From Burkholderia mayonis (lineage in GTDB: Bacteria > Pseudomonadota > Gammaproteobacteria > Burkholderiales > Burkholderiaceae): 64,000 nucleotides of DNA. Below the pieces are notes generated by a model. That model searched no databases and was not told the DNA's origin. It saw only the letters and a program-made list of their open reading frames with translations. Of the stretch, positions 50,213-64,000 are shown piece after piece. The DNA lies in contig NZ_CP013387.1 in NCBI RefSeq assembly GCF_001523745.2, positions 620,001-684,000 on the forward strand, written 5' to 3'. Position 1 is the stretch's first letter, and each line of letters opens with the position of its first letter. A program made the translations under genes and the position numbers.

Positions 50213-50341
50213 GGCGATTCGGATTCCGTAACGAGAGTGGACCGCGCTCGCCGCTCTCGTACGATGCGGTGCGGTGCGGTGAGCGGGCCGCGACGGACGC
50301 GGCCCGCGTGGCGCGCACGGCGGCAATGCCGCCGTGCGGAG

Positions 50342-50905
50342 TTAGATCTTGCCGATCAGGTCGAGCGACGGCGTGAGCGTGTCGGCGCCCGGCGTCCACT
50401 TGGCGGGGCACACTTCGCCCGGATGCGCGGCGATGTATTGCGCGGCCTGGACCTTGCGCAGCAGTTCGCCTGCATCGCGGCCGATGCCGTTGTCGTGGAT
50501 CTCGCACAGCTTGATCTCGCCTTCCGGGTTGATCACGAACGTGCCGCGCAGTGCGAGGCCTTCTTCTTCGATCAGCACGTCGAAGTTGCGCGAGATCGCG
50601 AGCGTCGGATCGCCGATCATCGGATACTTGATCTTCGAGATCGTGTCCGACGTGTCGTGCCATGCCTTGTGCGTGAAGTGCGTGTCGGTCGACACCGCGT
50701 AGATTTCGACGCCGAGCTTCTGGAAGTCGGCGTAGCGGTCGGCCAGATCGCCGAGCTCGGTCGGGCACACGAACGTGAAGTCGGCCGGATAGAACACGAC
50801 GACGGACCACTTGCCCTTCAGGGTTTCGTCGCTGACTTGCACGAAGTCGCCGTTATGGTATGCGGTGGCCTTGAACGGTTTGATCTGGCTGTTGATGATC
50901 GGCAT
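50342..50905 (-). CDS. ahpC: Alkyl hydroperoxide reductase subunit C (peroxiredoxin)
   Basis: This 187-aa typical 2-Cys peroxiredoxin has the peroxidatic cysteine in [17 protein letters not shown] near 47 and the resolving cysteine in [10 protein letters not shown] near 165. The Thr-Cys-Arg pocket is preserved. It removes hydrogen and organic peroxides in the cytoplasm and is reduced by AhpF. Promoter lies between 50906 and 51009; an OxyR site could not be defined by eye. Confidence 0.96.
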
Positions 50906-51009
50906 TTGCGCTTCCTCTTGGGTCGGTGTGTGATCAGGAAGCGCCAGTATGGCGATGTGGCCCGTTTCTGTGAAATTGCTTGTTTCAATGGTCGGAATCG
51001 GTAATGCCT

Positions 51010-51341
51010 ATCCGGCCGCCCGGCCGGGCGGCGGGCAGGCAAAAAAAGGCTCATCGAGGAATTCCGGGGAACGCGGCGCGGATTTTGAGAGGATCTCATG
51101 CTCACGCTTGGCCGTCGTCAGGCCGTCATGTCGCTTGCCGCCGTCGCGATCGGCTTGCGCCACCCAGTTATGGATCGTTTGCGCCGTGGGTTCGAACTCC
51201 CGCGCAAGCTCCTCGGGCGCACGGCCAGCCTTGACCAACTAGACCATCTGCGCCAGAAATTCCGGCGCGTAGGGGTTGTGGTGCTTTCCCATGACGGGCT
51301 CCTCCTGTTCCACAGGATAGGTGTCCAAGAAACCGGGTCAA
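51010..51341 (-). mobile_element. IS3-family insertion-sequence remnant (OrfA pseudogene)
   Basis: The start MGKHHNPYAPEFLAQMV (ATG at 51292) is followed by an in-frame TAG, then LVKAGRAPEELAREFEP and TAQTIHNWVAQADRDGGKR, the HTH of an IS3-type OrfA. After DGLTTAK the sequence jumps to REHEILSKSA, so the leucine-zipper part is deleted; OrfB is missing altogether. The sequence upstream (to about 51341, TGACCCGGTTTCTTGGACAC on the minus strand) resembles an IS3 left end. It lies between ahpC and the start of the accessory cluster. Confidence 0.75.
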
Positions 51342-51432
51342 CTTCAGTCGACCGCCCGAGCGACAAAACAAGAGTCGCGCGGACGGTCACTTCTGTCTGC
51401 GCGGGAGTGACCGTACAGACAGGCTTTTCGCG

Positions 51433-52716
51433 TCAAGGACGCGCCACGTCGAACAGTCCTTCGCGGACGGGCGAAAAAACATCGAGGTCCGCTTGGTAGC
51501 GGGATTGACCTTCGACTGCCAGTTCGACCAGCACGCGCCCGAACAACGGAGCGTATTTGAATGCGCGCCCAGACTCCATGACGCACATTGAAGCGCGTGG
51601 ATAGAACGCGTCGGTGGACGGTTCCGTCGGGATTCGACCGATGACGAGCTTGCCGTCCGGACTCATGGAATAGAGGCATGTGCCGGCGTGATGGTAGCGG
51701 CCGGCATCGATGACACCGGGATCGATGAGCCGGCCGAGATGACCGGTGAGCTCATCCAGCAGGCGCTCGTTCACGCCAGGCCGGATTGCCGCGGGCGAGT
51801 CGAAGACATCGTAGGTGTAGTCCGCGCTCATCTTCACCATGTTGCTCATGGTCGGCGAGAAATCCAGCGGAGGGAAGCCGTAGAACGTGCCATGGTCGCT
51901 CGCATCGATGTTCCCGAACTCGAACCAGATCGGTACCTGGGGACTGCGTTTCTTGAGTTCCCAGTACGCGTAGTTCATCTGCCAGATCTTCCAGCGCGGC
52001 GTTTGCTGCAGGCCGAAGCTCTTCAGCACCGAGTCGGTCCATACGCCCGGACATGCTATCAGATGTTGTCCGTGGACCGAGAGCGACTCGCCGTCGCTCT
52101 CGGTGTGCAGCATGTAGCCGCGGCCCGCGGCCGCCGGATGATGGTCGATGCCGACCACGGCATGCTTGTCCAGCACGTGCAGGTGGCCTGTCTGCTTCGC
52201 CGCCAGAAAGAACGTCTTCGCGGCCGCCTGGACATTGATAGAGGCGCTCGCGGCCTGGACAAGCCCCGCATAATCGTCAGGCAGGGCCGCCCGATTGAAT
52301 ACCGGGAACCGCCGGTGGATCGCATCGGGAGAGTCCAGGTACGCATACGGCATTCCCATGCCGTCCATGGTCGCCCGGACCTGCATGATGTTGCCTTCGG
52401 TCGTCATCGGCGCATCCCGATGTCCAAAGAAAATGAGATCGTTCACCGCAAGCAGTTGCGCGCCCGTTGCGTGCTGGAGTTCCATCCAGAGGGCGAGGGA
52501 CGTTTCGGCCAGACGCGCTTCCGACTTGTTGTCCTGCATCAGGCGGAACATCCGCTCGATGCCCTTGGAGCTATTGACGTCATTGCGGACACCGAACTGA
52601 TCGATGATCAGCGTATCCAGGCCCTTGGCCGTCGCATAGTAGGCGCTTGCGAGACCGAGAATGCCTCCGCCTACGACCAGCACGTCGAAATTCGAACCGG
52701 ATTTGATGGGATGCAT
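51433..52716 (-). CDS. SolA/monomeric sarcosine-oxidase-like covalent flavoenzyme
   Basis: This 427-aa DAO-family oxidase has the FAD motif VVGGGILGLASAYYATAKG near residues 13-31 and ACPGVWTDSVLKSFGL midway. GTCLYSMSPDGKLVIGRIP follows, whose cysteine matches the covalent 8-alpha-S-cysteinyl FAD attachment site of sarcosine oxidase and N-methyltryptophan oxidase. Start ATG 52716 follows a GGAG site; longer in-frame extensions are not credible. It oxidises a secondary amine, N-methyl or cyclic amino acid to an imine; in this cluster it could dehydrogenate an amino-acid unit. Last gene of the leftward cluster, 71 bp after the FecB-like gene. A broken paralogue lies at 5690-6329. Confidence 0.82.
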   Translation of the reverse strand: MHPIKSGSNFDVLVVGGGILGLASAYYATAKGLDTLIIDQFGVRNDVNSSKGIERMFRLMQDNKSEARLAETSLALWMELQHATGAQLLAVNDLIFFGHRDAPMTTEGNIMQVRATMDGMGMPYAYLDSPDAIHRRFPVFNRAALPDDYAGLVQAASASINVQAAAKTFFLAAKQTGHLHVLDKHAVVGIDHHPAAAGRGYMLHTESDGESLSVHGQHLIACPGVWTDSVLKSFGLQQTPRWKIWQMNYAYWELKKRSPQVPIWFEFGNIDASDHGTFYGFPPLDFSPTMSNMVKMSADYTYDVFDSPAAIRPGVNERLLDELTGHLGRLIDPGVIDAGRYHHAGTCLYSMSPDGKLVIGRIPTEPSTDAFYPRASMCVMESGRAFKYAPLFGRVLVELAVEGQSRYQADLDVFSPVREGLFDVARP

Positions 52717-52787
52717 CGTATTCTCCTGATAGCTAGAGCTTGCGTGATGGTGATGATTCGTTGATGCGACCGGCAGCGCAGCGGGTC

Positions 52788-53960
52788 TTAAGCGCGCTCG
52801 GTCCGGAGCCGCGCCGCGCTCAGGCTGACCCAGTACCCGGGTTGATAGGGAACCGGCAGAAATCGCTCGTGCAGCTCGCGAAACGTGGCTTCGGGATCCA
52901 GGTCCGCAAAGGGCTCCGGGTGCAGCCATTTGGCCAGGCGCTGCAGCGCGATGAAGTAATACGGGTTGTCGTAGAACGGATGCCAGATCGCATACACGCG
53001 CCCACTTCTGACTGCGCGCAGGGCCCGGTACCCGGGCCTTGCCATCAGTCGTTGAAGACGAGCCCGCCCTTCGGCGAGGTCGGCGCCCGGCCCGAGATTG
53101 ACCCAATCGCCTGCCGGCGAATACAGCGACCAGTTGGCTCCTGTGACAATCACGACGTCCGGGTCGGATGCGATGACCTGCTCCGGATGCAGTGTTCCAA
53201 AGTCCCCTTGCAGAAATCGGTCGCCGAGGTTGTCGCCGCCCGCGGCTCTGACCAATATGCCGAAGTTGCCATGGCCGTAGCTCAGGCAGCAGTCGTCATA
53301 GAGGCCGGCGGCACGCTCGAGCATGAGCAGCGGCCGCGATGCGACCTTTTGCAAGGTCTCTGTCACACGCCGTGTCTGCGTGTCGCGGAATGCCAGGAAG
53401 CTGCTTGCGCGCGCCTGGCACCCCAGCAACTCGCCCATGATCTCTACGCTGCGCGTCGCGTTGGCAGACATAGGCGTGCGGAAATCCAGGTAGATGACCG
53501 GAATGCCGACTCGCTCCAGATGCGATTCCAGCCCCGACGATTCGGCGGCCGAGCGTGAGCTCAGGTTCAGCAGCACCACGTCGGGCTCCAGCGAGATGAG
53601 CCGTTCTGCGCTCAGCGCGTCCGACGTCGCGCCCGGAAACGTGGGAATGTTGCCGATTTCAGGAAAGCGCCGCTGATACGCGCGATAGCTGTCGAGATCG
53701 GCGGCGCGGAAGTTCTCCCCCCAGCCGACCACGTCGTGGAAAGGCGCGTTCGAACGCAGCAAGGGCAGGACATAGGCTAAGGCGCCGTCACCCAGCAACA
53801 GGCGGCGCGCCGGGCGACGCAGCGGTACGGCGCGGCCTGCGACGTCCTTGATCACCGTCGCTTCGGCGGAGACAGCCCGCGCCGAAGGCAGGGATACCAG
53901 CCACGCCGTGGCGAGCATACCGTGCAGCAGCGCGCGGCGCGGCCGGGAAATGTCAGTCAA
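52788..53960 (-). CDS. FecB/BtuF-like periplasmic metallophore-binding protein
   Basis: This 390-aa ABC-type receptor of the periplasmic-binding-protein 2 class binds ferric siderophores, cobalamin or heme. The N-terminus RPRRALLHGMLATAWLVSLPSARA is a signal peptide with a Tat-like RR. The domains are IKDVAGRAVPLRRPARRLLL, LISLEPDVVLLN, then VASDPDVVIVTG-type IASDPDVVIVTG and the late ALRAVRSGRVYAIWHPFYDNPYYFIALQRLAKWLHP region (family marker). The start used is TTG 53960; an internal ATG at 53918 would cut the signal peptide. No permease or ATPase follows, so it needs partners elsewhere. Confidence 0.8.
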   Translation of the reverse strand: MTDISRPRRALLHGMLATAWLVSLPSARAVSAEATVIKDVAGRAVPLRRPARRLLLGDGALAYVLPLLRSNAPFHDVVGWGENFRAADLDSYRAYQRRFPEIGNIPTFPGATSDALSAERLISLEPDVVLLNLSSRSAAESSGLESHLERVGIPVIYLDFRTPMSANATRSVEIMGELLGCQARASSFLAFRDTQTRRVTETLQKVASRPLLMLERAAGLYDDCCLSYGHGNFGILVRAAGGDNLGDRFLQGDFGTLHPEQVIASDPDVVIVTGANWSLYSPAGDWVNLGPGADLAEGRARLQRLMARPGYRALRAVRSGRVYAIWHPFYDNPYYFIALQRLAKWLHPEPFADLDPEATFRELHERFLPVPYQPGYWVSLSAARLRTERA

Positions 53961-54415
53961 ATTTTCATCTCGCGACGAATGGGCCGCGTCCGGGCGCAGC
54001 CGCTCGATTGCACGGCTGTACGGCAGGGCTGCGCCGGACGCGGCACTTTCTCTCGGTGCCGCTTGCAGCGAACGCGGACCAGGCAGGCTCCTATCGTCTG
54101 GACGCGGGCGCCGAGGCGGCTGATATGACTCCCGCTGTCAATCGGGATCGTTTTTTCGGTTTTCAAATGCATGTTGTTCGAATTTCCTGAGGGCGGCGCA
54201 GCAGTAAATCTCGACGGTGGATCGCGCTGATATCCGCGGATTGGCTGCCGCATTACAGAGGTCCGCCCAATGAGTCTGCCGCTATCTAGTGCCGCAAGTC
54301 GAATCAGATCCGTTGCGTAGCCGCGTCGCGGGTTGCTCGTGTGCCGGGCTACGCCGCCTTCAGGAAACGCCTTCTCGAGTGGTTAGGGTGATTCAAGCGT
54401 TGCTCAGGTGTCGTG
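53961..54415. other. Gene-free stretch between FecB-like gene and IS110 remnant
   Basis: No coding sequence is supported. It holds the promoter or an intercistronic gap of the FecB-like gene and a short AT-rich part at 54140-54200. No Fur-like box was found here. The IS110 remnant follows, so the original spacing to the dehydrogenase gene has probably been altered. Confidence 0.5.
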
Positions 54416-54728
54416 TTACGCCCTGCGTACATCGGGCCGGACGGCGAACGACATCGCGAGCCGGCTGACGTCCCGGATGAAGCCGCTGAGTTCGCGGGCG
54501 ACCGCGACGACCGCGATGTTCTTTTGCTTAACCGCACGGACCCGCCTCGTAGACAATGCGGATGCATCGCGCCTTTGACTGTAGGCGCTTGCACAGCCGA
54601 TCGATATCCGTTTTGGTCGTGCCGATCTTGCCAAGTAGTTCGACCTCGCCCGCGCCGAGCGCATAGGCGATGGTGATCGAGTCCTTATGGACGTCGAGAC
54701 CGACGTACAGCGTGCTACCGTCTTCCAT
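54416..54728 (-). mobile_element. IS110-family transposase remnant
   Basis: The start MEDGSTLYVGLDVHKDS (ATG 54728) is the DEDD N-terminus of an IS110-family transposase, and it stays open through TTKTDIDRLCKRLQSKAR to YEAGPCG. Then a deletion and frameshift join it to VRAVKQKNIAVVAVARELSG, FIRDVSRL, the C-terminal end. The catalytic serine region is lost, so the element is dead. It interrupts the leftward gene run between the dehydrogenase-like and FecB-like genes. Confidence 0.8.
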
Positions 54729-54853
54729 GCTGGCCTCCGCGGTGGAAATCGCCGGGTGTGGCCCCGTCCACACCGTGCGGCTCTGGCAGCGATGCTAACC
54801 CGCGTTTGATTCCTCGCAGCAGGCCAGCCCCTTTCTCACGGGAGCCATACCGA

Positions 54854-55867
54854 CTAGTGGGCGTGCGAAAGCAGCGTGGGAATGTTGCAACCCAGCAGAT
54901 GCGAGCGCTTGAGCAACTCTTCCGTCTTGGCGCCGATCAGCACCCCGGTGTATTCGTTCGCCTGATTTTGCGTCATGATGCGGAAGACATCCGGGAACGA
55001 CCGTTCGACGCTGTCGCAGATCACAGCGCCGGCATTGCTGACGTAATCGGGGAGATACCCGATGCCCCTGCCGATCAGCTTCGCTTCCGCTTCCGGGCTC
55101 TCGAACGGGGAGTTCGAACTGCTGACCACCCAGCGAGTGCGAATGCGATCGACGGTCTTCATGTCGAGAATCCCGGAGAGGGAGGCGACGCATAGTACGT
55201 CGGATGCGCATGACCAGAACTCGTCCTCGCTCAGCATGCGCACGCCGGTGGGGATCTCCGGACTTGGCCGAACGTCGAATCCGACCACCTCGTAGTCGCG
55301 TTCGAGGCATTGCCGGGCCACCTCCCGGCCCACCTTGCCCATGCCGTGAATTGCCACCAGCGGCGCGTCGCTGCTCCGGTGCGTGAACTGCAGCACGGCC
55401 AGCAACGCACTCCAGACTCCGTAGCCCGTGGCGATCGAGGTATTGATCTGGGGGCTGTCCATGGCGTCCAGAATCCACTGCGTCGACTTCCGGAGATAGG
55501 CCATGTGGGTACTGCTGGTGTTGATGTCGCATCCGGTGTACATCGAGCCGGCATACCGGTTGAGCGTCTCGCCGATTGCGTCGAACACGTGCGGCGCGTC
55601 GTCGGGCGCGGCGTTGCTGTTGACGACGATCTTTCCGCCGCTGAAGCCCGTGCGGTATAGGCCGTGCTTCAGGTCCATCGCATGGGCCAGCATGACTGCC
55701 TCGTCCTTTTGCTTGCTCAGCGAGTCATATCGATGCCAGCGGATTCCGCCGTTGCTCGGCAGCGCGTGCCGGCGCGGCGAGCATGCGATGGTGAAGGAAC
55801 TCTGGTCGTCCACGACGATGGTTTCGACTTCGTATTTGCCGTAGCGGGGATGATTGATGATGGCCAT
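54854..55867 (-). CDS. Leucine/phenylalanine-dehydrogenase-like amino-acid dehydrogenase
   Basis: This 337-aa Glu/Leu/Phe/Val dehydrogenase-family protein has the catalytic lysine region HGLYRTGFSGGKIVVNSN near 68-85, DINTSSTHMAYLRKST (equivalent to DVNT in LeuDH), SIATGYGVWSALLA, and the NAD motif IHGMGKVGREVARQC near 180-194 with an acidic FDVRP end. Start ATG 55867, 20 bp after the PKS stop. Normal activity is reversible deamination of an amino acid. Next to the SbnA-like enzyme it might take the place of SbnB, releasing a diamino acid by oxidative cleavage, or it may supply an amino or keto acid precursor. This is inference. Confidence 0.78.
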   Translation of the reverse strand: MAIINHPRYGKYEVETIVVDDQSSFTIACSPRRHALPSNGGIRWHRYDSLSKQKDEAVMLAHAMDLKHGLYRTGFSGGKIVVNSNAAPDDAPHVFDAIGETLNRYAGSMYTGCDINTSSTHMAYLRKSTQWILDAMDSPQINTSIATGYGVWSALLAVLQFTHRSSDAPLVAIHGMGKVGREVARQCLERDYEVVGFDVRPSPEIPTGVRMLSEDEFWSCASDVLCVASLSGILDMKTVDRIRTRWVVSSSNSPFESPEAEAKLIGRGIGYLPDYVSNAGAVICDSVERSFPDVFRIMTQNQANEYTGVLIGAKTEELLKRSHLLGCNIPTLLSHAH

Positions 55868-55887
55868 AGTCAAGCGTACTTTTTTCC

Positions 55888-58770
55888 TTAACGATGTGTG
55901 CGAATAGCTTTGGCGGCACCCGCTTCCACCAGGCAGGCGCGTAAGCCTGTTGGTGTCGGGGCGCGCATGAAGTCCGGCACGCTCACCATGACCCCGAGCT
56001 CGGAGTCGGCAAGTGCGACCAGTTTGATGACCGACAGCGAATCGCCGCCATCGTCGCTGAACTGCCGATGCGGGTCCGACGGCGCCACTCCGGTGGCTTT
56101 CTCCCAAAGGGCTGCGGCTGCGGCGTCGAGCGTTTCATACTCGCGCGACGCCAGACGGCGGACGGGCGCCTCGGGCGGCGGGTTTCCGGCCGCATCCGCA
56201 TCCGCGGCGATGCCATGACGTGTCCTGTCGAACGGATAGTGAGGCAAGGGCGCGACCGTGCCGGCGTTGTCCCATGACGGGCGCCAGTCCAGGTCCACGC
56301 CTGCCGTCCATAGTTTTTGCAGCGCCCCGTGCCAGATTTCGTGCTCTTGGGATTCGTCGCGTTCGGCGCGCATCGTGCGGACGGCGATGTCTTTCCCGCG
56401 CAACGCCATCGTCAGTGCGGTCAGCGTGGTGCCGGGCCCGACCTCGACGAATACCGTTCCTTCCCGGGCCGGTATCGACTGGATCGCGTCCACGAACCGC
56501 ACTGGCTCGCGGGCGTGCCGCGCCCAATAGTCCCGGTCCAGCTGCGCCATTGATGCAAGTTCGGAACCCAGCAAGGTCGAATGGAACCGGATCCCGGCAG
56601 CGTCCGTCGATGGGGCCGGCGCCGCCAGTACCAGTTCGGCCAGAGCAGGGTCCATCATCGAAGAGTGGAACGCGTGGGATACCGACAACGCACGGCAGCG
56701 AATCCCGCGCTTCGACAACGATGCCTGCACGCGTTGAATCGCCGCCGCCGTGCCAGAGAGCACGCACGATTCCTTGCCATTGACGGCGGCGAGTGACACA
56801 TCCTCCGCAAGCCAGTCCTGGCAGGCTTCCTCGCTCATGGATACCGCCAGCATCGAGCCCGGAGGCAGGGCGGACATCAACCGGCCTCGGCGGGCAGCGA
56901 ACAGGAGCGCATGTTCGTCAGTCAATACGCCTGCAATGCACGCTCCCGCGATTTCTCCGAGGCTATGCCCGACGACTGCGTCGGGCACGATGCCATGCTG
57001 CATGAGAAAACGCGCCATCGCGATCTGGACGGCCACCAGAGCCGGCTGAGCCGTCGCGGTGTCGGTGAGTCTGGCGCTGCCGCTGCCATGCAGCAGGAAG
57101 GAGACGTCGACGTTTGCGTTGTCGCGAAGCAGGCCGACTAGTTCACGCAGAACGGTGGCGAAGCGGGCATTGGACTGTGCGAGGCCCGTCGCCATGCCGA
57201 GGAACTGGCTGCCTTGACCGGGGAACTGGAACACGACATGCGGCGCGCGGCGCCCGCTGTCGCGCACCTCTTCGCCCACCTGAAGCATTCCGTCCTTGCC
57301 GGCCAGCAAGGTCGCGCGATATCTGAGCGGCCGCCGCGTCGTTTGGGCGCTCCACGCCAGCGTATCGATAGGCAATGCCGAGAGATCCGAGCGGTAGGTC
57401 TGAATCAGTCGATGGCACGCGGCCTCGCTTTGCCCGGACACCGGAACGGCCGACGGGTAGATAGCCGGAGCCGGAGGCCGCTCGTCGGCGTCCAGGGGCG
57501 GACGGGCGAGCAAGACGTGCGTATTGGTTCCCCCGATGCCGAATGCGCTGACGCCAATCGCGGTTCGCGGATCCGTCGACTCCCAACGCTCGGCGTACGT
57601 TGGAAAGTAGAACGGGCTGCCATCCAGCGCAATGGACGGGTTGACCTCGTCGATATGAATCTGCGGCGCTATCCAGCCGTGCTGAATCTGAAGCACGGCC
57701 TTGATCAGGCCAGCCATCCCGGCGCACGTCTCGAGGTGCCCGACGTTGGCTTTGACGGCGCCCAACGCACAATGGCGGGGGGCGACGTCGCCGGTCGCGA
57801 ACAATTCGTTCAGCGCGTCGAACTCGATCGGATCGCCGGCAATCGTGCCGGTGCCGTGAGCTTCCATGGCCCGCATGGCCGAAGGCGCGAGGTTGGCATC
57901 CTTCATGGCCTGGCTGATCAGCCGGCGTTGCCCGTCGACACTGGTGGTGGTGAAACCCACCTTGCGAGCTCCGTCGTTGTTTACGGCGCAGCCCTTGATC
58001 ACCGCCAGCACGCGATCGCCGTCGACCAGCGCCAACCGCAGCGGCTTCAGCACGACGACAGCCACGCCACTGCCGAACACCGTGCCGCTCGCGTTGCTGG
58101 AGAACGGCATGCAATGGCCATTGCGGGAGTAGACCATGCCCTGCTGGGCCTGGTACGGAACCCGCTGGGGAAAGCGAACCGTACATCCGCCGGCCAGCGC
58201 GGTGCGGCAACGGCCCGCCCGCAGCGCCTCCACGGCCTCGGCGACGGCGACGAGGGACGTGGCGCAGGCGGCCTGCACGCCGAGCACCGGCCCCTCGATG
58301 CCCAGATGCCACGCTGTGCGGCTGACCAGATAGTCCTTGTCGTTGGTGATCTGCAGCTCGAAAGCGGACGGCTGGAATTTCTCCATCAGTTCCGATTGCT
58401 GCAGGTGCGCTAGATACGCCGAACTGCTCCCCCCCGCGAACAGGCCGGTATCCGGCAAGCGCCCGGGGAGAATTCCGCTTTGCTCCAGCGCGTGCCACGC
58501 ACATTCGAGAAACAGGCGGTGCTGCGGGTCCATCAATGCGGCATCCCGATGGCCGACCCCAAAGAAGGCGGCATCGAATGCCAGCACGTCGCCCGTCAGC
58601 GGCGCGGCGAATGGGAGGGTTTGCCGGTCGCTCGGCGCATCGCCGAGTTCCATCACCGATTCGACGCCGTTGACGAGGTTGTGCCAATACTCGTCGGGAT
58701 CGCTTGCGCCTGGGAACCGGCAAGCCATGCCGATTACGGCGATGTCCCGATCAGAGGGCTGGATGTGCAT
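55888..58770 (-). CDS. Type I polyketide synthase module, KS-AT-ACP
   Basis: A 960-aa single module. KS (about 8-425): active Cys169 in VQAACATSLVAVAEA, histidines H305 (EAHGTGT) and H345 (NVGHLETCAG). AT (about 512-810): GHSLGE with Ser603, and HAFHS at 699-703, the signature of malonyl-CoA selectivity. ACP (about 880-945): phosphopantetheine Ser911 in DDGGDSLSVIKL. No ketoreductase, dehydratase or thioesterase domain, so one unreduced malonyl extension is predicted. No N-terminal docking domain. Starts 12 bp after the 193-aa gene. It probably extends the acid loaded by the DhbE-like ligase, or condenses it with an amino-acyl unit. Confidence 0.9.
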   Translation of the reverse strand: MHIQPSDRDIAVIGMACRFPGASDPDEYWHNLVNGVESVMELGDAPSDRQTLPFAAPLTGDVLAFDAAFFGVGHRDAALMDPQHRLFLECAWHALEQSGILPGRLPDTGLFAGGSSSAYLAHLQQSELMEKFQPSAFELQITNDKDYLVSRTAWHLGIEGPVLGVQAACATSLVAVAEAVEALRAGRCRTALAGGCTVRFPQRVPYQAQQGMVYSRNGHCMPFSSNASGTVFGSGVAVVVLKPLRLALVDGDRVLAVIKGCAVNNDGARKVGFTTTSVDGQRRLISQAMKDANLAPSAMRAMEAHGTGTIAGDPIEFDALNELFATGDVAPRHCALGAVKANVGHLETCAGMAGLIKAVLQIQHGWIAPQIHIDEVNPSIALDGSPFYFPTYAERWESTDPRTAIGVSAFGIGGTNTHVLLARPPLDADERPPAPAIYPSAVPVSGQSEAACHRLIQTYRSDLSALPIDTLAWSAQTTRRPLRYRATLLAGKDGMLQVGEEVRDSGRRAPHVVFQFPGQGSQFLGMATGLAQSNARFATVLRELVGLLRDNANVDVSFLLHGSGSARLTDTATAQPALVAVQIAMARFLMQHGIVPDAVVGHSLGEIAGACIAGVLTDEHALLFAARRGRLMSALPPGSMLAVSMSEEACQDWLAEDVSLAAVNGKESCVLSGTAAAIQRVQASLSKRGIRCRALSVSHAFHSSMMDPALAELVLAAPAPSTDAAGIRFHSTLLGSELASMAQLDRDYWARHAREPVRFVDAIQSIPAREGTVFVEVGPGTTLTALTMALRGKDIAVRTMRAERDESQEHEIWHGALQKLWTAGVDLDWRPSWDNAGTVAPLPHYPFDRTRHGIAADADAAGNPPPEAPVRRLASREYETLDAAAAALWEKATGVAPSDPHRQFSDDGGDSLSVIKLVALADSELGVMVSVPDFMRAPTPTGLRACLVEAGAAKAIRTHR

Positions 58771-58782
58771 GGAATCCCCGAT

Positions 58783-59364
58783 TCAGTCGGTCATGTATCC
58801 GCGACGAATGCGCTGTTGCAGGGCGGCGTCGGCGGCGTTGATGGGAATCAGCAGCACAAAGGACCGATAGCGCAGGCGAGGGACTTCCTGATACAACTGC
58901 CGGACTCCGAACATGCCGGCCACTTCGCCGCTGACGCCGGTGGCAAACAGCGATTGCCACCGGCCTTGCCAGATCGCGGACGAATTCCAGATGCCCGCGG
59001 TCTCGATCCTGCCGAACTTCGTCTCCGCCGTTTCCCGATAGTAAGAAACGACGTCGTCGTCCAGGCGCGAGATCTTCCAGCCTTCGCCGCAGATGGTTCC
59101 CAGTTCATCGCCGTCGTCGCCGACCCAACGGTCGTTGTGCGAGTTGACGTCGCCCACGCTGGGCCGGTCGTCGGCCTGGGCCTTGAATTTGATTTCGCAC
59201 AGTTCGACCGCCGGGATGATGACCATGTGGTCATGGCCGATCCGCTCGGCAACGGCCTGCCGCGCCGTTTCGATTCCGTCGGGCTGGCCCAGTTGCGCTC
59301 TTGCCAGATTGGCGAGAGCGACGAGGCTGGACATCATGTCGAGTTCAGGCATTTGTTCACGCAT
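58783..59364 (-). CDS. Unknown 193-aa protein in the biosynthetic cluster
   Basis: I do not recognise the family. It lacks a signal peptide and membrane helices. Conserved-looking stretches are VELCEIKFKAQADDRPSVGD, then WVGDDGDELGTICGEGWKI and GRIETAGIWNSSAIWQGRWQSLFATGVSG. The alternation and the D-G-x-x-x-G-T pattern are reminiscent of small beta-barrels of the allene-oxide-cyclase-like group, which act as cyclases or dirigent-like proteins in some pathways; that is weak. The ATG at 59364 is chosen, although 59352 and 59370 are also in frame. It overlaps the SbnA-like gene end by a few bases and is 12 bp from the PKS, so it must belong to the pathway. Confidence 0.6.
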   Translation of the reverse strand: MREQMPELDMMSSLVALANLARAQLGQPDGIETARQAVAERIGHDHMVIIPAVELCEIKFKAQADDRPSVGDVNSHNDRWVGDDGDELGTICGEGWKISRLDDDVVSYYRETAETKFGRIETAGIWNSSAIWQGRWQSLFATGVSGEVAGMFGVRQLYQEVPRLRYRSFVLLIPINAADAALQQRIRRGYMTD

Positions 59365-60424
59365 TGGCATAGTTGGGGTTCCCGATAGGATTCTTGTCAC
59401 TTTCCATCAGCTGGCGGCCGCGCTCGCGGTCGGCGTCGCTGCCGGCATCGGCGAATACGGTCACGACGGTGGCGTTGCGTCCGAGTTCGGCGGCGACGTT
59501 GCACGCGACGATCCAGTTGGCGGCGGCCGAGCCTCCGATCGGGATGCCCGTTTCCTCGAGGAACCGGTACATCGCCTTGAGCGACTCGGCATGCGTGACC
59601 GTCTGGAATGGCACGGCGAAAGGAATCAGCGAAACGAACGGCTGGCGAAATCCGTAGCCCAAGCCGCCGGCGCCGGCGAAGCGGGCGCTGCCATTTGGCG
59701 GCGCCATGGTGCCGAAGGGCATTTCGTCGGGCGTACACCCGACCACGCGCACATCGGGATTCTGCTGCGCCAGCGCCGCGTAGACACCGGCGAGCGTGCC
59801 GCCGGTGCCGACGGCTGCGACCCAGGCATCGGCGCGACGGCCGTCGAGCTGGCGGCAAATCTCCGTGCCGGTGTGGTGCTGGTGCACCGCCGTGTTCACT
59901 AGATTCAAGTGTTGAGACAGCAGCGTCCAGCCCGGTTCTTCGCGAGCGATCTGCTGGCTCCGGGCGATGATGCCGAGCAGAAAGTGGCTGCGATCCACCT
60001 TCGTGACGATTGCTTTGTTGTCGTTCAGCGATTGCAGCAGCTCGTCCGAAGCAGAATCCGGAATCACCACGTGTACCGGCAGTCCGCACAGGTTGCCCAG
60101 GTGAGCCAGGGCTTTGGCCATGTTGCCGCCTGAGGAATCGAGCAGCTTCAGCGGGCCGCTGCTGAAGTCGTGGGCGTTGATCGCGTCGCAGAAGAGGCCG
60201 AACGCCACGCGATCTTTGATGGAGCCGGACGGATTCTTGGACTCCAGCTTGGCGTACACGCGAGCGCCGTTCGTCGGCCCCGGGACCTCTACCAGCGGGG
60301 TATTGCCCAGCGAATCGCGATAGGCCTTCAGTTGAGGGAACAGCTCCAGCGCTTTTCCGAATGCGGGGGCTGCTGGCTGAGCATTGAACAGTTCAAAATC
60401 CAAGATGAGTCTCCCACTGCGCAT
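59357..60424 (-). CDS. SbnA/cysteine-synthase-family PLP enzyme
   Basis: This 355-aa fold-type II PLP protein has LGNTPLVEVPGP, the PLP lysine in ESKNPSGSIKDRVA (about 70), the phosphate loop AAVGTGGTLAGVYAAL, and DSSGGNMAKALAHLG in the place of the TSGNTG loop of cysteine synthase. That deviation and the N-terminal extension resemble SbnA of staphyloferrin B, which joins O-phosphoserine and glutamate on the way to L-2,3-diaminopropionate. The start is uncertain: TTG at 60400 with GGGAGA in front is possible. It lies 13 bp after the thioesterase gene. Confidence 0.82.
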   Translation of the reverse strand: MRSGRLILDFELFNAQPAAPAFGKALELFPQLKAYRDSLGNTPLVEVPGPTNGARVYAKLESKNPSGSIKDRVAFGLFCDAINAHDFSSGPLKLLDSSGGNMAKALAHLGNLCGLPVHVVIPDSASDELLQSLNDNKAIVTKVDRSHFLLGIIARSQQIAREEPGWTLLSQHLNLVNTAVHQHHTGTEICRQLDGRRADAWVAAVGTGGTLAGVYAALAQQNPDVRVVGCTPDEMPFGTMAPPNGSARFAGAGGLGYGFRQPFVSLIPFAVPFQTVTHAESLKAMYRFLEETGIPIGGSAAANWIVACNVAAELGRNATVVTVFADAGSDADRERGRQLMESDKNPIGNPNYANA

Positions 60425-60437
60425 TTGAGTTGAGTGT

Positions 60438-61199
60438 TTATGAGGCGAGTGCCGAACGATGGGACCTCAGGAGGGCGTCCACCACGGCCGGTACCTGGTC
60501 ACGAAGATAGAAGTGGCCTCCGGGAAATACCTCTGGTGTCAGGTGTTGCGATAGGAATGCAGACCATTCGGCGAGCTTGGGTCGGTCGACCAGCGGGTCT
60601 TCGTCGCCGCCGAATATGCGGGTTGCCGGCAATTCGCCGACGGGTAGCGGCGCCAGCCGTTGCAACAGCGCGAGATCCTGGCGAATGAAGGAAACCAGCA
60701 GGCGTTGCGCGTCTTCCCCGATCCGGCTCAACCCGTCCACTTCGCCGAGCCCCAGCGCCTGTTGCGCGAGGCGATCGATGTCCTGCTCCGTTCGAAGCTC
60801 GGTCTGCAGGGCGGCCGGCGTCATCTGCGACGACAGGACGAGCTGTTCGATTCGAAATCGCAACGGCGCCAGGGCCTGGGCGACATGCAGGGCCAGCAGC
60901 GCGCCCATGCTGTGGCCGAAGACGGTGATGGGCGCGACGCCCAGAAGATTGGCCAGCCCTCGCGTACAACGACGGACCGCGGCGACGGGATCGTCCCAGG
61001 CCGAGGCGGTGCCTGCGCCAAGTTGTGGATACTGCAGGACGATCAGCTCGACATCCGCCGGCAGGTGGTCGCGCCATGGGCGGTAGAATTCCGTACTGCC
61101 GCCGGCATGCGGAAAGATCACCAGTTGGTGCCGCACCGGCGCTGCGCCCGCAAGGCTGAATCTCACGGCTCCTTCGGCTTGGGTTTGCAGGTGTCTCAT
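60438..61199 (-). CDS. Type II thioesterase (GrsT/RifR-like)
   Basis: This 253-aa alpha/beta hydrolase clears misprimed carrier domains. Oxyanion loop IFPHAGGSTEFYRPW, nucleophile Ser97 in VFGHSMGALLALHVA, acid in RIFGGDEDPLVD, histidine in FPGGHFYLRD: all complete. The gene start overlaps the ligase stop (ATGA), so synthesis is coupled. It may alternatively release the final product, as no TE domain is present in the PKS. Confidence 0.88.
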   Translation of the reverse strand: MRHLQTQAEGAVRFSLAGAAPVRHQLVIFPHAGGSTEFYRPWRDHLPADVELIVLQYPQLGAGTASAWDDPVAAVRRCTRGLANLLGVAPITVFGHSMGALLALHVAQALAPLRFRIEQLVLSSQMTPAALQTELRTEQDIDRLAQQALGLGEVDGLSRIGEDAQRLLVSFIRQDLALLQRLAPLPVGELPATRIFGGDEDPLVDRPKLAEWSAFLSQHLTPEVFPGGHFYLRDQVPAVVDALLRSHRSALAS

Positions 61200-62818
61200 A
61201 GCAGTGCCGCCTTTGATGCCTGTCCGGCACTTTCGGCATCGTCGCGAACCCTTGCCCGGAGCAATGCGCGATCGATCTTCCCAATGCCCTTGCGGGGTAT
61301 CTCGTCGACCAGAACGAGCTTCTCCGGCAGCTTGAACGACGCGACGCCAGCCGTCTCCAAATGCTGGCGGATATCCGACAGCAACAACGGTTCGCCTTCA
61401 TGCGCGACGGCGAACAGGCAGGCCACTTCGCCGAAGCGCGGGTCGGCCATGCCGACACAGGCGGCGTCCTTGAGCCGGGCGTGCCCCTTGCTCAATTCTT
61501 CGAGTTCCTCGGGGCTGAATTTCTCGCCGCCGCGGTTGATGGAGTCGGTCACGCGCCCGTCGATATAGACGTTGCCATCGGCATCGAGATGGGCTAGGTC
61601 GCCGGTGCGGTAGTACCCGTCCGGTGTAAAGGCGCGCGAAGAGGCTAGCGGGTCGTTGTAATATGTCTTGATCGTGTACGGACCGCGGGTGATCAGCTCG
61701 CCGGATGCGCCGCAGGGCACTGGCGTACCGCTTTCATCGACGATCAGCACCTGGTCCTGCTCGGACAGCGGACGCCCCTGCGAATGGAAGCGGACTGCAT
61801 CGGTGTCGGTACTGCGGGTGAAGCAAAGCAGCCCTTCGCTCATCCCGTAGCACTGCTGAATGCGGATGCCCAATTTCGATTCGGCGCGAGCGGCGAGGTT
61901 CGGGGACAGGCGCGACCCACCCACCTGGACGTGTTGCAATGTGCCGAGCCTGGCGGGCAGGTCGTCGATTTGCTCGAGCCATTGCGTCAGCAATGCCGGA
62001 ACGAGCGTGGTGTGAGTTACCCCGTGTGCGCTGATGAGCTCCAGGGCCGTTTGAGCCGACGTATCGGATGCCAGGACGACGGTTCCGCCGCAGCTCAGGG
62101 TGCCGAGCATGCCGGGACAGTTGATGACAAAGCCGTGCGAGATCGGCATGACCGCGAGGTAGACGGACTGGCGGCTGAGCTCAAATACCCGACAGGCTTC
62201 CGCGATCATGTAGCTGTAGCCGCCGTTCAGCCTCGCGATGGCTTTCGGCAAGCCCGTCGTGCCGCTGGATAGCAGCATCATCGCCGTATCCTCGGCAAGC
62301 ATTTCGGCAGCGGCGCATTCGCTGACCGCTGTCGCGTCGGCGGGCGCGGAGCAGAAGAGGCCAAGGTCGCGCCAGCCCGCATGTTCATCGCCCGGCGAAC
62401 CGTCGAGCAGCCGAAGCGCGACATCAAGGTTCTCGTCGCGGAGAAAGTCGGTCACGACGCGTGCCGCGCTGAAGCGCCGATTGCCTTTGGTCAACGCAAT
62501 GACGCAGGGACGCGTCGCCCTGAGTACGTGTCGAAGTTCCCGCTCCCGGTATGCGGGGAGCATGGGAACGGGGACGGCTCCCGTCATCAGCGCCGCAAGC
62601 ATCAACACGACGGCGTCGGCGCAATTGGGCAACTGGAACGCGACGCGGTCGCCTTTGCCGATCTCTGCAGTGCGAAGCCGTGCCGCGGTAGCGGCGACCT
62701 GCGCCATCAACTGCCGGTATGAGATCACAGTGCCGGCGGCAACCAGTGCGGGAGCGTCTTCGCCGGTTTGCAGGGCGGCCGCCAGCCGCTGGTTCAGGAG
62801 GGCAGGGTGGCCGTTCAT
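61196..62818 (-). CDS. DhbE/EntE-like aryl-acid adenylating ligase
   Basis: This 540-aa stand-alone adenylation enzyme has the P-loop MMLLSSGTTGLPKAIARL (about 180-197), QVGGSRLSP, IQQCYGMSEGLLCFTR (A5), ITRGPYTIKTYY, RTGDLAHLDADGNVYIDGR (A7/A8), SINRGGEKFSPEELEE, and catalytic K514 in GIGKIDRALL. The motifs track those of 2,3-dihydroxybenzoate ligases. The substrate-pocket AHN motif reads SHGF (228-229): the asparagine that contacts the 2-hydroxyl of catecholate is glycine, so the acid may not be salicylate or DHB. It is coupled to the carrier-protein gene by TGATG. No salicylate or DHB synthesis gene lies in the window. Confidence 0.88.
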   Translation of the reverse strand: MNGHPALLNQRLAAALQTGEDAPALVAAGTVISYRQLMAQVAATAARLRTAEIGKGDRVAFQLPNCADAVVLMLAALMTGAVPVPMLPAYRERELRHVLRATRPCVIALTKGNRRFSAARVVTDFLRDENLDVALRLLDGSPGDEHAGWRDLGLFCSAPADATAVSECAAAEMLAEDTAMMLLSSGTTGLPKAIARLNGGYSYMIAEACRVFELSRQSVYLAVMPISHGFVINCPGMLGTLSCGGTVVLASDTSAQTALELISAHGVTHTTLVPALLTQWLEQIDDLPARLGTLQHVQVGGSRLSPNLAARAESKLGIRIQQCYGMSEGLLCFTRSTDTDAVRFHSQGRPLSEQDQVLIVDESGTPVPCGASGELITRGPYTIKTYYNDPLASSRAFTPDGYYRTGDLAHLDADGNVYIDGRVTDSINRGGEKFSPEELEELSKGHARLKDAACVGMADPRFGEVACLFAVAHEGEPLLLSDIRQHLETAGVASFKLPEKLVLVDEIPRKGIGKIDRALLRARVRDDAESAGQASKAALL

Positions 62819-63099
62819 CAAGCGCCTCTCGCCGTGTCGCCCGCGGCAACGGCAGACGGCCGGGCAAGTGCAGGTGCCGAGTCGATCAGTTGCTCCAGCT
62901 CCTGCAGCGAGTGATCGTGGGTCCCCCAAAGCGAAAAGCCGACGCACCCCAACTGCTCCAGCATCCGTTGCAGCTCGAACGTTTCCGCCGAGCTCAACCC
63001 GAGGTCTGCTCGCAGTTGCCAGTCACTCGCCGCTGTTCGAAGTAGTTCGGGCTGCAGCCCTATTTCGGTCAGTAGGCCGATGATCCGTCCAGATGTCAT
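62818..63099 (-). CDS. Stand-alone acyl/aryl carrier protein
   Basis: This 93-aa four-helix carrier protein has the phosphopantetheine serine in RADLGLSSAETFELQRML (about residues 31-48). It is the first gene of the leftward run and overlaps the ligase start by one base, so it is the probable acceptor of the acid activated by the ligase. It starts 27 bp from the nearest Fur-like box, close to divergent control elements. Confidence 0.82.
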   Translation of the reverse strand: MTSGRIIGLLTEIGLQPELLRTAASDWQLRADLGLSSAETFELQRMLEQLGCVGFSLWGTHDHSLQELEQLIDSAPALARPSAVAAGDTARGA

Positions 63100-63126
63100 T
63101 CCGCACCTCTGTGTTTGTTTTATGAG

Positions 63127-63141
63127 TGAGAATTATTAACA
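63127..63141. promoter_or_regulatory. Fur-like box 1
   Basis: The sequence TGAGAATTATTAACA matches the 7-1-7 Fur consensus TGATAATNATTATCA at 12 of 14 defined positions. It lies 27 bp upstream of the carrier-protein start. Confidence 0.65.
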
Positions 63142-63142
63142 T

Positions 63143-63161
63143 ATGACCGTCGGTCGGTCAA
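63143..63161. promoter_or_regulatory. TetR-type operator in the cluster promoter, copy 1
   Basis: The sequence ATGACCGTCGGTCGGTCAA has 9-bp arms with seven matching positions. It shares the GTCGGTCA half with the operators at 7108-7126 and 9039-9057 and directly adjoins Fur-like box 1. Confidence 0.6.
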
Positions 63162-63221
63162 TTGCAATTGAGGCTCAAATTATTGCTCGCGACGTGGTGC
63201 ATCATTGCTTGACTTGCAAAT

Positions 63222-63240
63222 GAAAATGGTTATTATTAAC
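63222..63240. promoter_or_regulatory. Fur-like box 2
   Basis: The sequence GAAAATGGTTATTATTAAC matches the 19-bp consensus GATAATGATAATCATTATC at 14 positions. It is located about 200 bp upstream of the TonB receptor start. Confidence 0.55.
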
Positions 63241-63241
63241 T

Positions 63242-63260
63242 GCGACTGGCGGTCGGTCAA
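63242..63260. promoter_or_regulatory. TetR-type operator in the cluster promoter, copy 2
   Basis: GCGACTGGCGGTCGGTCAA has a perfect right half (GTCGGTCAA) and a degenerate left half (five of nine positions). Same position relative to Fur-like box 2 as copy 1 has to box 1. Confidence 0.45.
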
Positions 63261-63437
63261 TAGCCCTTTGAGCCGCTTCCTTCCCATTACGGTTATCCGG
63301 ATGGCAAGTACACCCGTTCCCGGCGCGCGCCTGTCAGAAGGTCTTTCGTCAAGGCCGTCGGTTGCAGCGGTGCGCATGCGCTCTCAACCCGGCGCCCATG
63401 GCGAACGACCCTTTGACTCGAGACAGCACGGACAAAC

Positions 63438-64000
63438 ATGCAACGCCATTTTCGAACCAGGCTCCGCCGACCGGATGGGGGGGCTCGGTCCCGCTACTCG
63501 TCTTCGCACCGCCGTTTCGCGCTCTCGCTGATGCTGGCAACTTGCGCTGGCGTTTCCGGCGCGTGGGCGCGGGAGGACGCAGGAAGCAATCCATCGACTA
63601 CCCGTATTCAAGAGGAGGATCCCCCTGCACTGCCGACCGTTACTGTCACCGGCCGGCAGCCCGGCGCAGACAATGGGCCGGAGCGAGGCTATGTGGCCGA
63701 GGCGGCCACTGTGGGGACCAAGGTGCGTACATCCGTACTGGAAACGCCGCAGTCGGTCTCCGTGGTCACCCGCCGGCAGATGGAGGCGCAACAGCCGACC
63801 ACCACGAGCCAGGCGCTGCGCTATGCCGCCGGCGTCAATAGCGAAAGCTACGGCGGCTTTGGAGCGCAACTGGACCTCACGCGCATCCGTGGCATCGATG
63901 CGGACTACTACCTGGACGGGCTGCGCGTGATCAGCAATACGTCGACCTGGACGCCGCAGATCGATCCGTACACGCTGGAGCGTGTGGAAGTGCTGCGCGG
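63438..64000 (+). CDS. TonB-dependent siderophore receptor, N-terminal part (runs off window)
   Basis: The first 187 codons of an outer-membrane receptor, open to the last base of the window. An extended N-region of about 25 residues is followed by a signal peptide (RRFALSLMLATCAGVSGAWA). A TonB-box-like LPTVTVTG follows near residues 70-77, and then the plug domain: ETPQSVSVVTRRQMEAQQPT, TSQALRYAAGVN and LDLTRIRGID, YYLDGLRV, typical of ferric-siderophore receptors (FhuA/FpvA class). ATG 63438; an upstream TetR/Fur element suggests iron control. It probably imports the metal complex of the product made by the divergent cluster. Confidence 0.9.
   Translation, partial: MQRHFRTRLRRPDGGARSRYSSSHRRFALSLMLATCAGVSGAWAREDAGSNPSTTRIQEEDPPALPTVTVTGRQPGADNGPERGYVAEAATVGTKVRTSVLETPQSVSVVTRRQMEAQQPTTTSQALRYAAGVNSESYGGFGAQLDLTRIRGIDADYYLDGLRVISNTSTWTPQIDPYTLERVEVLR

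What the first reader, a model, noticed from the sequence alone, without database searches (positions are those of the whole stretch)
51433..64000. A compact metallophore-type biosynthetic cluster with an unfamiliar enzyme set
Seen: carrier protein, DhbE-like ligase, type II thioesterase, SbnA-like enzyme, unknown 193-aa protein, KS-AT-ACP, Leu/Phe-dehydrogenase-like enzyme, FecB-like binding protein and covalent-flavin amine oxidase on one strand, and a TonB receptor divergently. Known: siderophore operons combine adenylation, carrier, TonB receptor, FecB-like protein and Fur boxes. Inferred: the product is a small aryl/acyl-malonyl-amino-acid chelator, perhaps with a diaminopropionate or cyclic-imine part. 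No salicylate/DHB synthase, NRPS condensation domain or NIS synthetase is present, so it does not fit the pyochelin, catecholate or staphyloferrin types I know. It is the best candidate for an undescribed system.
Basis: partly seen in the sequence, partly recalled or inferred. Interest (0 to 1): 0.9.

Follow-up and report, generated by a model that had tools for sequence, protein, structure and literature searches.

The report
Burkholderia proferrorosamine-type iron(II)-chelator gene cluster
These genes are a Burkholderia version of a known bacterial pathway (the ros genes of Erwinia) that builds a small iron(II)-binding molecule, so the cluster is real and its product predictable rather than a new kind of system.

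Summary
In detail: the nine genes and the divergent TonB receptor are there and intact, and the locus runs about 7 kb past the window. "Undescribed system" does not hold. The SbnA-like enzyme is 65% identical to the protein named RosC of Erwinia rhapontici, and carrier-ligase-thioesterase-RosC-barrel-PKS-dehydrogenase stand in the order of the ros (proferrorosamine A) cluster in 10 other genomes. Best reading: L-lysine becomes picolinate (dehydrogenase, then NikD-like oxidase); ligase and carrier load it; KS-AT-ACP adds malonyl; RosC joins the C2 unit to aminoacrylate from O-acetylserine; closure gives a pyridyl-pyrroline Fe(II) chelator, taken up by TonB/FecB/FecCD. Two fresh points: the unknown 193-aa protein is an AbyU/AbmU/PyrI4-type barrel that follows rosC in 11 of 11 clusters (nine of them found through it), so ring closure printed as spontaneous may be enzymatic; and the Burkholderia/Pseudomonas oxidase is a divergent NikD relative in another place. 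The product is predicted, not measured. New member of a known kind.

The parts
62818..63099 (-). free-standing carrier protein (93 aa), proposed to carry the picolinoyl starter
   Evidence: no Pfam/NCBIfam match; LGLSS motif; 45-97% identity in the 10 related clusters
61196..62818 (-). aryl-acid AMP ligase, RosA equivalent (540 aa)
   Evidence: DHB/salicylate-AMP ligase family, but SHGFVINCPG where the two ligases aligned have HNF; same motif in 9 of 9 ligases examined, own included
60438..61199 (-). type II thioesterase, RosB equivalent by position (253 aa)
   Evidence: PF00975 E 1.5e-26; GHSMG
59357..60424 (-). PLP enzyme, RosC orthologue (355 aa); joins the C2 unit to the aminoacrylate of O-acetylserine
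   Evidence: 65% identity over 330 aa to P0045, named RosC [Erwinia rhapontici] in nr; RosC group 100/100 apart from CysM-like rows
58783..59370 (-). AOC-like beta-barrel, RosD equivalent by position (195 aa); overlaps the end of the rosC equivalent
   Evidence: PF18678; PDB kin AbmU, AbyU, PyrI4; model pLDDT 90.4; 51% to an E. rhapontici protein
55888..58770 (-). type I PKS module KS-AT-ACP, RosF equivalent (960 aa), one malonyl extension
   Evidence: KS ACATSL, AT GHSLG/HAFH (malonyl type, recalled rule), ACP GGDSL; Pfam
54854..55867 (-). Glu/Leu/Phe/Val-dehydrogenase-like enzyme, RosG equivalent by position (337 aa); proposed L-lysine alpha-dehydrogenase
   Evidence: 59% to an E. persicina protein; Lys67, Lys79, Asp114 align with the catalytic residues of leucine dehydrogenase, pocket Leu40 replaced by Asn39 (residue roles recalled)
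54118..54853 (.). 736-bp insertion with an IS110-family transposase remnant, after the dehydrogenase gene
   Evidence: absent from the otherwise collinear G017 cluster; weak PF01548 match below its cut-off
52788..53960 (-). FecB/FhuD-type periplasmic binding protein (390 aa)
   Evidence: PF01497 E 4.9e-19; a relative lies in the fetched stretch of 8 of 10 other clusters, not in G035 or L037
51433..52716 (-). NikD-like covalent-flavin oxidase (427 aa), proposed functional equivalent of RosE; would aromatise piperideine-2-carboxylate to picolinate
   Evidence: best PDB match NikD, 1.2e-34; NikD R53, E101, Y258, D276, C321 kept, W355 replaced by Arg; best NikD candidate in the genome
63438..64000 (+). 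TonB-dependent siderophore receptor, first 187 aa of 755 (continues beyond the window)
   Evidence: PF07715 in the window; full length in L002:539-2806
63222..63240 (.). Fur-box-like site in the divergent promoter region
63151..63162 (+). CGGTCGGTCAAT, first of two direct copies, possible TetR operator
   Evidence: GGTCGGTCAAT also lies twice between the receptor and carrier genes of G017, G024 and G052, and once before the carrier gene of G035
63250..63261 (+). CGGTCGGTCAAT, second copy

Best explanation
This is a ros-type cluster that makes proferrorosamine A (also called pyrimine; a 2-pyridyl group on a pyrroline carboxylic acid, structure recalled) or a very close pyridyl-pyrroline Fe(II) chelator, plus the genes to take its iron complex up. 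Steps: the dehydrogenase deaminates L-lysine at C2 and the keto acid closes to piperideine-2-carboxylate (inferred); the covalent-flavin oxidase aromatises this to picolinate (inferred from NikD kinship); ligase and free carrier load picolinate (inferred); the KS-AT-ACP adds one malonyl unit with no reduction (read from the domains); the thioesterase frees the beta-keto acid (inferred); RosC adds the decarboxylating C2 unit to the aminoacrylate formed from O-acetylserine (proposed in print for Erwinia RosC); the 2-amino-5-oxo acid closes to the pyrroline, perhaps inside the RosD barrel (inferred). MFS export, TonB/FecB/FecCD/ATPase uptake, Fur and TetR control are inferred.
For: PLP enzyme 65% identical to the protein named RosC of E. 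rhapontici and in one group with it, 100/100. The seven genes after its carrier fit rosA-G, with ligase, PLP enzyme and PKS at letters A, C and F as printed. Printed pathway: picolinate + malonyl-CoA + O-acetylserine via RosC. Oxidase best PDB match NikD. Ligase motif identical in the Burkholderia and Serratia types. AT of malonyl type.
Against: No product was measured. Born et al. 2016, the founding paper, is not held, so the pathway is taken from papers that cite it. The oxidase is only about 23% identical to the NikD-type one of the Serratia clusters, sits elsewhere, and lacks the Trp355 that Serratia keeps. A NikD relative in another pathway is proposed to stop at a partly oxidised product (PMC11446937, passage). 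The insertion at 54118-54853 separates the FecB and oxidase genes from the rest and may cut their transcription. A RosC relative alone proves little: 3 of 5 further loci fetched carry one with no other core ros gene. I know of no experiment showing lysine alpha-dehydrogenase activity for RosG.
Confidence: 0.85

Rival explanations
1. Type-2 (Burkholderia/Pseudomonas) clusters make a changed molecule, because their divergent oxidase gives another starter acid, such as a partly oxidised piperidine carboxylate.
For: Oxidase only distantly NikD-like and W355 replaced by Arg in all 5 type-2 oxidases examined (window; four loci). Partial oxidation by a NikD relative is proposed elsewhere (PMC11446937 passage).
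Against: Ligase motif identical in both types; R53, E101, Y258, D276 and C321 of NikD kept; the other core enzymes are relatives in the same order.
Confidence: 0.1
2. A siderochelin-like product built on 3-hydroxypicolinate and methylmalonate.
For: Same biosynthetic logic; RosC- and RosA-like genes are shared with the sid cluster of Amycolatopsis.
Against: No two-component monooxygenase, amidotransferase or cupin among the 16 locus proteins scanned; the AT has the malonyl motif HAFH.
Confidence: 0.04
3. A diaminopropionate-type metallophore, as the first reader suggested for the SbnA-like enzyme.
For: The PLP enzyme is in the cysteine-synthase/SbnA fold group.
Against: 131.7 bits against a cut-off of 349.95 for SbnA; RosC group; no SbnB-like protein among the ten scanned.
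Confidence: 0.02
4. The barrel protein makes the cluster a spirotetronate-like or other Diels-Alder pathway.
For: PDB kin AbmU, AbyU, PyrI4.
Against: One unreduced C2 extension gives no obvious diene and dienophile; no tetronate genes among the proteins scanned.
Confidence: 0.01

Closest known systems
proferrorosamine A (pyrimine) cluster rosA-G of Erwinia rhapontici P45 (Born et al. 2016, seen only through citing papers PMC11481915 and PMC9650351)
   Same: RosC 65% identical; ligase, TE, RosC, barrel, PKS, dehydrogenase in the same order after a carrier gene, as seen in the Erwinia-type locus L037; NikD-family oxidase; TonB receptor alongside
   Different: oxidase divergent and placed after FecB instead of between barrel and PKS; FecCD and ATPase beside the receptor (not seen in the stretches fetched of L037 or L038, apart from a 30% ATPase match in L037); IS remnant inside the locus; product not measured
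siderochelin cluster sid of Amycolatopsis WAC04611 (PMC11481915)
   Same: picolinate-type starter, one extender, O-acetylserine, RosC-like SidD
   Different: sid has discrete PKS domains, 3-hydroxypicolinate and methylmalonate, an amidotransferase and a cupin-type hydroxylase
NikD of nikkomycin biosynthesis (PDB 2oln)
   Same: covalent-FAD cysteine and most active-site residues (roles recalled)
   Different: W355 is Arg; E 1.2e-34 here against 9.6e-123 for the Serratia ros oxidase
AbyU/AbmU/PyrI4 [4+2] cyclases (PF18678)
   Same: AOC-like family; nine strands in the model; invariant Glu54 and Arg155 that may stand for the barrel-head salt bridge (distance not measured)
   Different: no obvious [4+2] substrate in this pathway; two N-terminal helices in the model

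Membership tests
ros (proferrorosamine A) cluster | RosC-type PLP enzyme | tested here: met
   65% over 330 aa to named RosC, group 100/100
ros (proferrorosamine A) cluster | seven genes A-G in order: ligase, TE, RosC, barrel, oxidase, PKS, dehydrogenase | tested here: inconclusive
   six of seven in that order; the oxidase gene lies downstream and is a distant relative. Letters B, D, E, G are assigned by position; A, C, F are printed
ros (proferrorosamine A) cluster | picolinate starter | tested here: inconclusive
   NikD-like oxidase and shared ligase motif fit; substrate not measured
ros (proferrorosamine A) cluster | product proferrorosamine A, Fe(II) chelation | not testable with these tools
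   needs mass spectrometry
SbnA (diaminopropionate) metallophores | SbnA equivalog score and an SbnB partner | tested here: not met
   131.7 of 349.95 bits; no SbnB-type protein among the ten scanned
siderochelin cluster | 3-hydroxypicolinate monooxygenase, amidotransferase, methylmalonyl AT | tested here: not met
   none among the 16 locus proteins scanned; AT HAFH
NikD picolinate synthases | covalent-FAD Cys and active-site residues | tested here: inconclusive
   R53, E101, Y258, D276, C321, K358 kept, W355 to Arg (residue roles recalled)
AbyU/PyrI4 barrel cyclases (PF18678) | family model and sequence kinship | tested here: met
   PF18678 4.4e-33; phmmer to AbmU 2.4e-9
AbyU/PyrI4 barrel cyclases (PF18678) | eight-stranded barrel fold | tested here: inconclusive
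   model pLDDT 90.4 with nine strands, but no fold comparison ran
AbyU/PyrI4 barrel cyclases (PF18678) | [4+2] cycloaddition activity | not testable with these tools
   no plausible diene/dienophile in the inferred pathway

The most novel reading that the evidence does not exclude
The RosD barrel, of the AbyU/AbmU/PyrI4 family known for Diels-Alder reactions, catalyses a non-pericyclic step: it holds the labile beta-keto acid or the 2-amino-5-oxo acid released by RosC and steers decarboxylative C-C bonding or closure to the pyrroline, a step written as spontaneous in print. In the type-2 clusters a separately diverged member of the sarcosine-oxidase family has become the picolinate synthase.
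Probability: 0.3. Interest if true: 0.55.

Novelty: new member of a known kind. Interest (0 to 1): 0.36.

Why it matters
It turns an unassigned Burkholderia cluster into one with a predicted, easily seen product (pink Fe(II) complex, m/z 191.08 by my own calculation), and shows a rare ferrous-iron chelator pathway in Burkholderia and Pseudomonas, with relatives of its genes in Xenorhabdus. It points to a barrel-cyclase protein that the pathway as cited does not explain, and to a diverged candidate picolinate-forming oxidase; both are directly testable in vitro. RosC-type enzymes are also useful models of PLP-dependent C-C bond formation.

Tried and rejected
Diaminopropionate route: rejected on the SbnA cut-off and the tree. 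Siderochelin: rejected on missing genes and AT motif. Other picolinate synthase in the genome: searched with the Serratia NikD-type oxidase; two matches, the cluster oxidase itself (77 bits) and one of 24.4 bits. Plasmid carriage: no tblastn match of the barrel protein in 72,556 plasmid records. Rfam: no match at the gathering score in 50000-64000. Wider class sample with the E. rhapontici barrel protein: 1 of 369 genomes, the own one. A batch of 80 class genomes searched with E. coli DnaA to find an enterobacterial handle gave none useful. Fold comparison of the RosD model: never ran, machine busy. Papers: 24 papers with at least one of four names, 23 listed; proferrorosamine + Burkholderia: one paper, PMC12658088, where the name stands in a figure legend; 5; 13, 11 listed; 238 with three of five terms, 10 listed. 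Under the name proferrorosamine that library gave no report of the cluster in Burkholderia; pyrimine and ferrorosamine were not paired with Burkholderia, and subscription journals are mostly not held. Seen of the papers: PMC11481915 abstract, passages, section 6 and part 1 of 2 of section 10; PMC9650351 passages with Table 6; PMC7117935 and PMC7479056 one reference entry each; PMC10946715, PMC11446937, PMC9854754, PMC12658088 passages; PMC7176366 searched for five words, none found; Born et al. 2016 nothing.
Full report
What is there. The window lies at G000:C2:620001-684000 of a 6.59-Mb, two-contig genome. The genus is Burkholderia: G052, listed as same genus, has a contig of 3,899,588 bases, the length of the longest contig of P0041, named Burkholderia sp. 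FERM BP-3421. The species is not told. From 63099 down to 51433 on the minus strand run a carrier, an aryl-acid ligase, a thioesterase, a cysteine-synthase-fold PLP enzyme, an AOC-like barrel, KS-AT-ACP, a Leu/Phe-dehydrogenase-like enzyme, then, after a 736-bp insertion, a FecB-like protein and a flavin oxidase. Divergently from 63438 run the TonB receptor (755 aa), FecCD permease, ABC ATPase, MmgE/PrpD and MFS genes, the last four beyond the window, and then a TetR gene on the other strand.

What it is. A protein search with the PLP enzyme found P0045, named RosC [Erwinia rhapontici], at 65% identity. Of the 120 best matches listed, those down to P0087 have 41% or more, the next 37% (only the 8000 best candidates were scored). 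A tree of 26 rows that I chose parts the RosC group (18 rows) from eight CysM-like rows with 100/100 support; it is rooted at the midpoint, ten of its 23 inner branches are open, and it warns of long branches. The barrel protein is 51% identical to an E. rhapontici protein and the dehydrogenase 59% to an E. persicina protein. PMC11481915 (section 6 and part 1 of the discussion read) reports the proposed pathway of Born et al. 2016 in E. rhapontici: picolinate, one malonyl-CoA by a type I PKS, O-acetylserine by RosC, spontaneous closure to a dihydropyrrole. PMC9650351 (passages) lists rosA to rosG as AMB18979 down to AMB18973, present in the E. persicina and E. rhapontici strains it studied.

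Gene order elsewhere. The carrier and the six genes ligase, TE, RosC, barrel, PKS and dehydrogenase stand in the same order in 8 of 8 genomes (Pseudomonas WS 5079, three Serratia, four Burkholderia) and in 2 of the 5 further loci. These 8 were found with the barrel protein, the 5 with RosC. In the other 3 of 5 (L039, L040, L041) a RosC relative stands without any other core ros gene in the stretch fetched. L037 is the reference: its barrel protein is 98.4% identical to the E. rhapontici one and its RosC 91% to P0045, the same 91% that PMC9650351 prints for E. persicina and for another E. rhapontici strain. Its genes after the carrier read ligase, thioesterase, RosC, barrel, NikD, PKS, dehydrogenase. 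That puts ligase, PLP enzyme and PKS at A, C and F, as printed; B, D, E and G are my assignment by position.

How it works. The oxidase's best PDB match is NikD (1.2e-34). NikD turns piperideine-2-carboxylate into picolinate (recalled; a lysine-P2C-NikD route is described in a passage of PMC11446937, where a NikD relative is proposed to stop half way). NikD residues R53, E101, Y258, D276, C321 and K358 are kept, W355 is Arg; their roles are recalled. The dehydrogenase keeps the residues aligned with the three catalytic ones of leucine dehydrogenase and has Asn for pocket Leu40 (roles recalled), which fits another substrate; lysine is inferred. The ligase has SHGFVINCPG in 9 of 9 examined, own included and G024 in part, where the two ligases aligned (salicylate and 2,3-DHB) have HNF. 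The AT is of malonyl type (HAFH), and the KS, AT and ACP motifs are there. One unreduced extension of picolinate, release, and RosC addition to aminoacrylate give 2-amino-5-oxo-5-(2-pyridyl)pentanoate, which closes to the pyrroline.

The barrel protein. PF18678; PDB relatives AbmU, AbyU and PyrI4. The AlphaFold2 model from a 26-row alignment has pLDDT 90.4 and nine strands after two helices. [quoted passage not shown] I did not measure their distance. The barrel gene follows rosC in 11 of 11 clusters, own one included, but the own cluster and eight others entered the count through the barrel gene itself, so only L037 and L038, found with RosC, are free of that bias. An enzyme role in ring closure is plausible and untested; for that bias I lowered its odds from 0.35 to 0.3.

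Two types. In Serratia, L037 and L038 the oxidase is a close NikD (Serratia against NikD 413 bits; L037 and L038 79-80% to the Serratia one) between barrel and PKS. In Burkholderia and Pseudomonas it is a distant NikD relative after the dehydrogenase; it was found in 4 of the 5 such genomes beyond the own one, G024's contig ending too early. The own genome holds no better NikD candidate.

Distribution and control. The barrel gene is in 5 of 65 Burkholderia genomes, own included, and in 1 of 369 genomes drawn from the class, the own one. RosC relatives at E 1e-120 or better are in 12 of 392 genomes of the Serratia family, of which I fetched five. Patchy spread with 62-79% identity of the core proteins to Pseudomonas WS 5079 and 70-77% to Xenorhabdus suggests transfer between lineages. 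A Fur-like box (15 of 19; 0 of 200 shuffles) lies in the divergent region; G017, G052 and Pseudomonas have such sites too, while in Serratia L004 the best site (13 of 19) is reached by 7.5% of shuffles. Two CGGTCGGTCAAT repeats beside it recur as GGTCGGTCAAT pairs in three further Burkholderia clusters and singly in G035, not in that place in Serratia L004; stray copies occur elsewhere too. A TetR gene lies in each of these loci.

Against. No product data; the founding paper was not read; the insertion may uncouple the FecB and oxidase genes; G035 has no receptor beside its cluster and only a 36% match in its genome. Verdict: a ros-type cluster, new member of a known kind.

Noticed in passing
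L039:8894-9922, L040:8868-9902, L041:8639-9697: RosC relatives (62-67% to RosC) with no other core ros gene in the stretch fetched; neighbours are an MFS and an epoxide-hydrolase gene, an EamA exporter with iron-type alcohol dehydrogenase genes, and an HTH_18 (AraC-type) regulator. They may make other amino acids.
   Followed up: partly
L002:4762-6141 (G000:C2, beyond the window): An MmgE/PrpD-family gene sits between the uptake ATPase and the MFS gene here and in G017; a relative (57-60%) lies beside the MFS gene in Serratia and L038; none close is held by G024, G035 or G052. No role in the pathway is evident.
   Followed up: partly
window 54118-54853: 736-bp insertion with an IS110-family remnant directly after the dehydrogenase gene, absent from the 97-98% identical G017 cluster.
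   Followed up: yes
L012:6805-9068 (G017): The TonB receptor of G017 matches in two overlapping pieces, which suggests a frameshift or an assembly error there. Described only.
   Followed up: no
L014/L015 (G035): A full biosynthetic set without receptor, FecB or FecCD in the stretch fetched; the best receptor match in that genome is 36%.
   Followed up: partly
window 51008-51499: Short ORFs that look like transposase remnants by eye at the downstream border of the cluster, where collinearity with G017 ends (51239); the two scanned have no Pfam match.
   Followed up: partly
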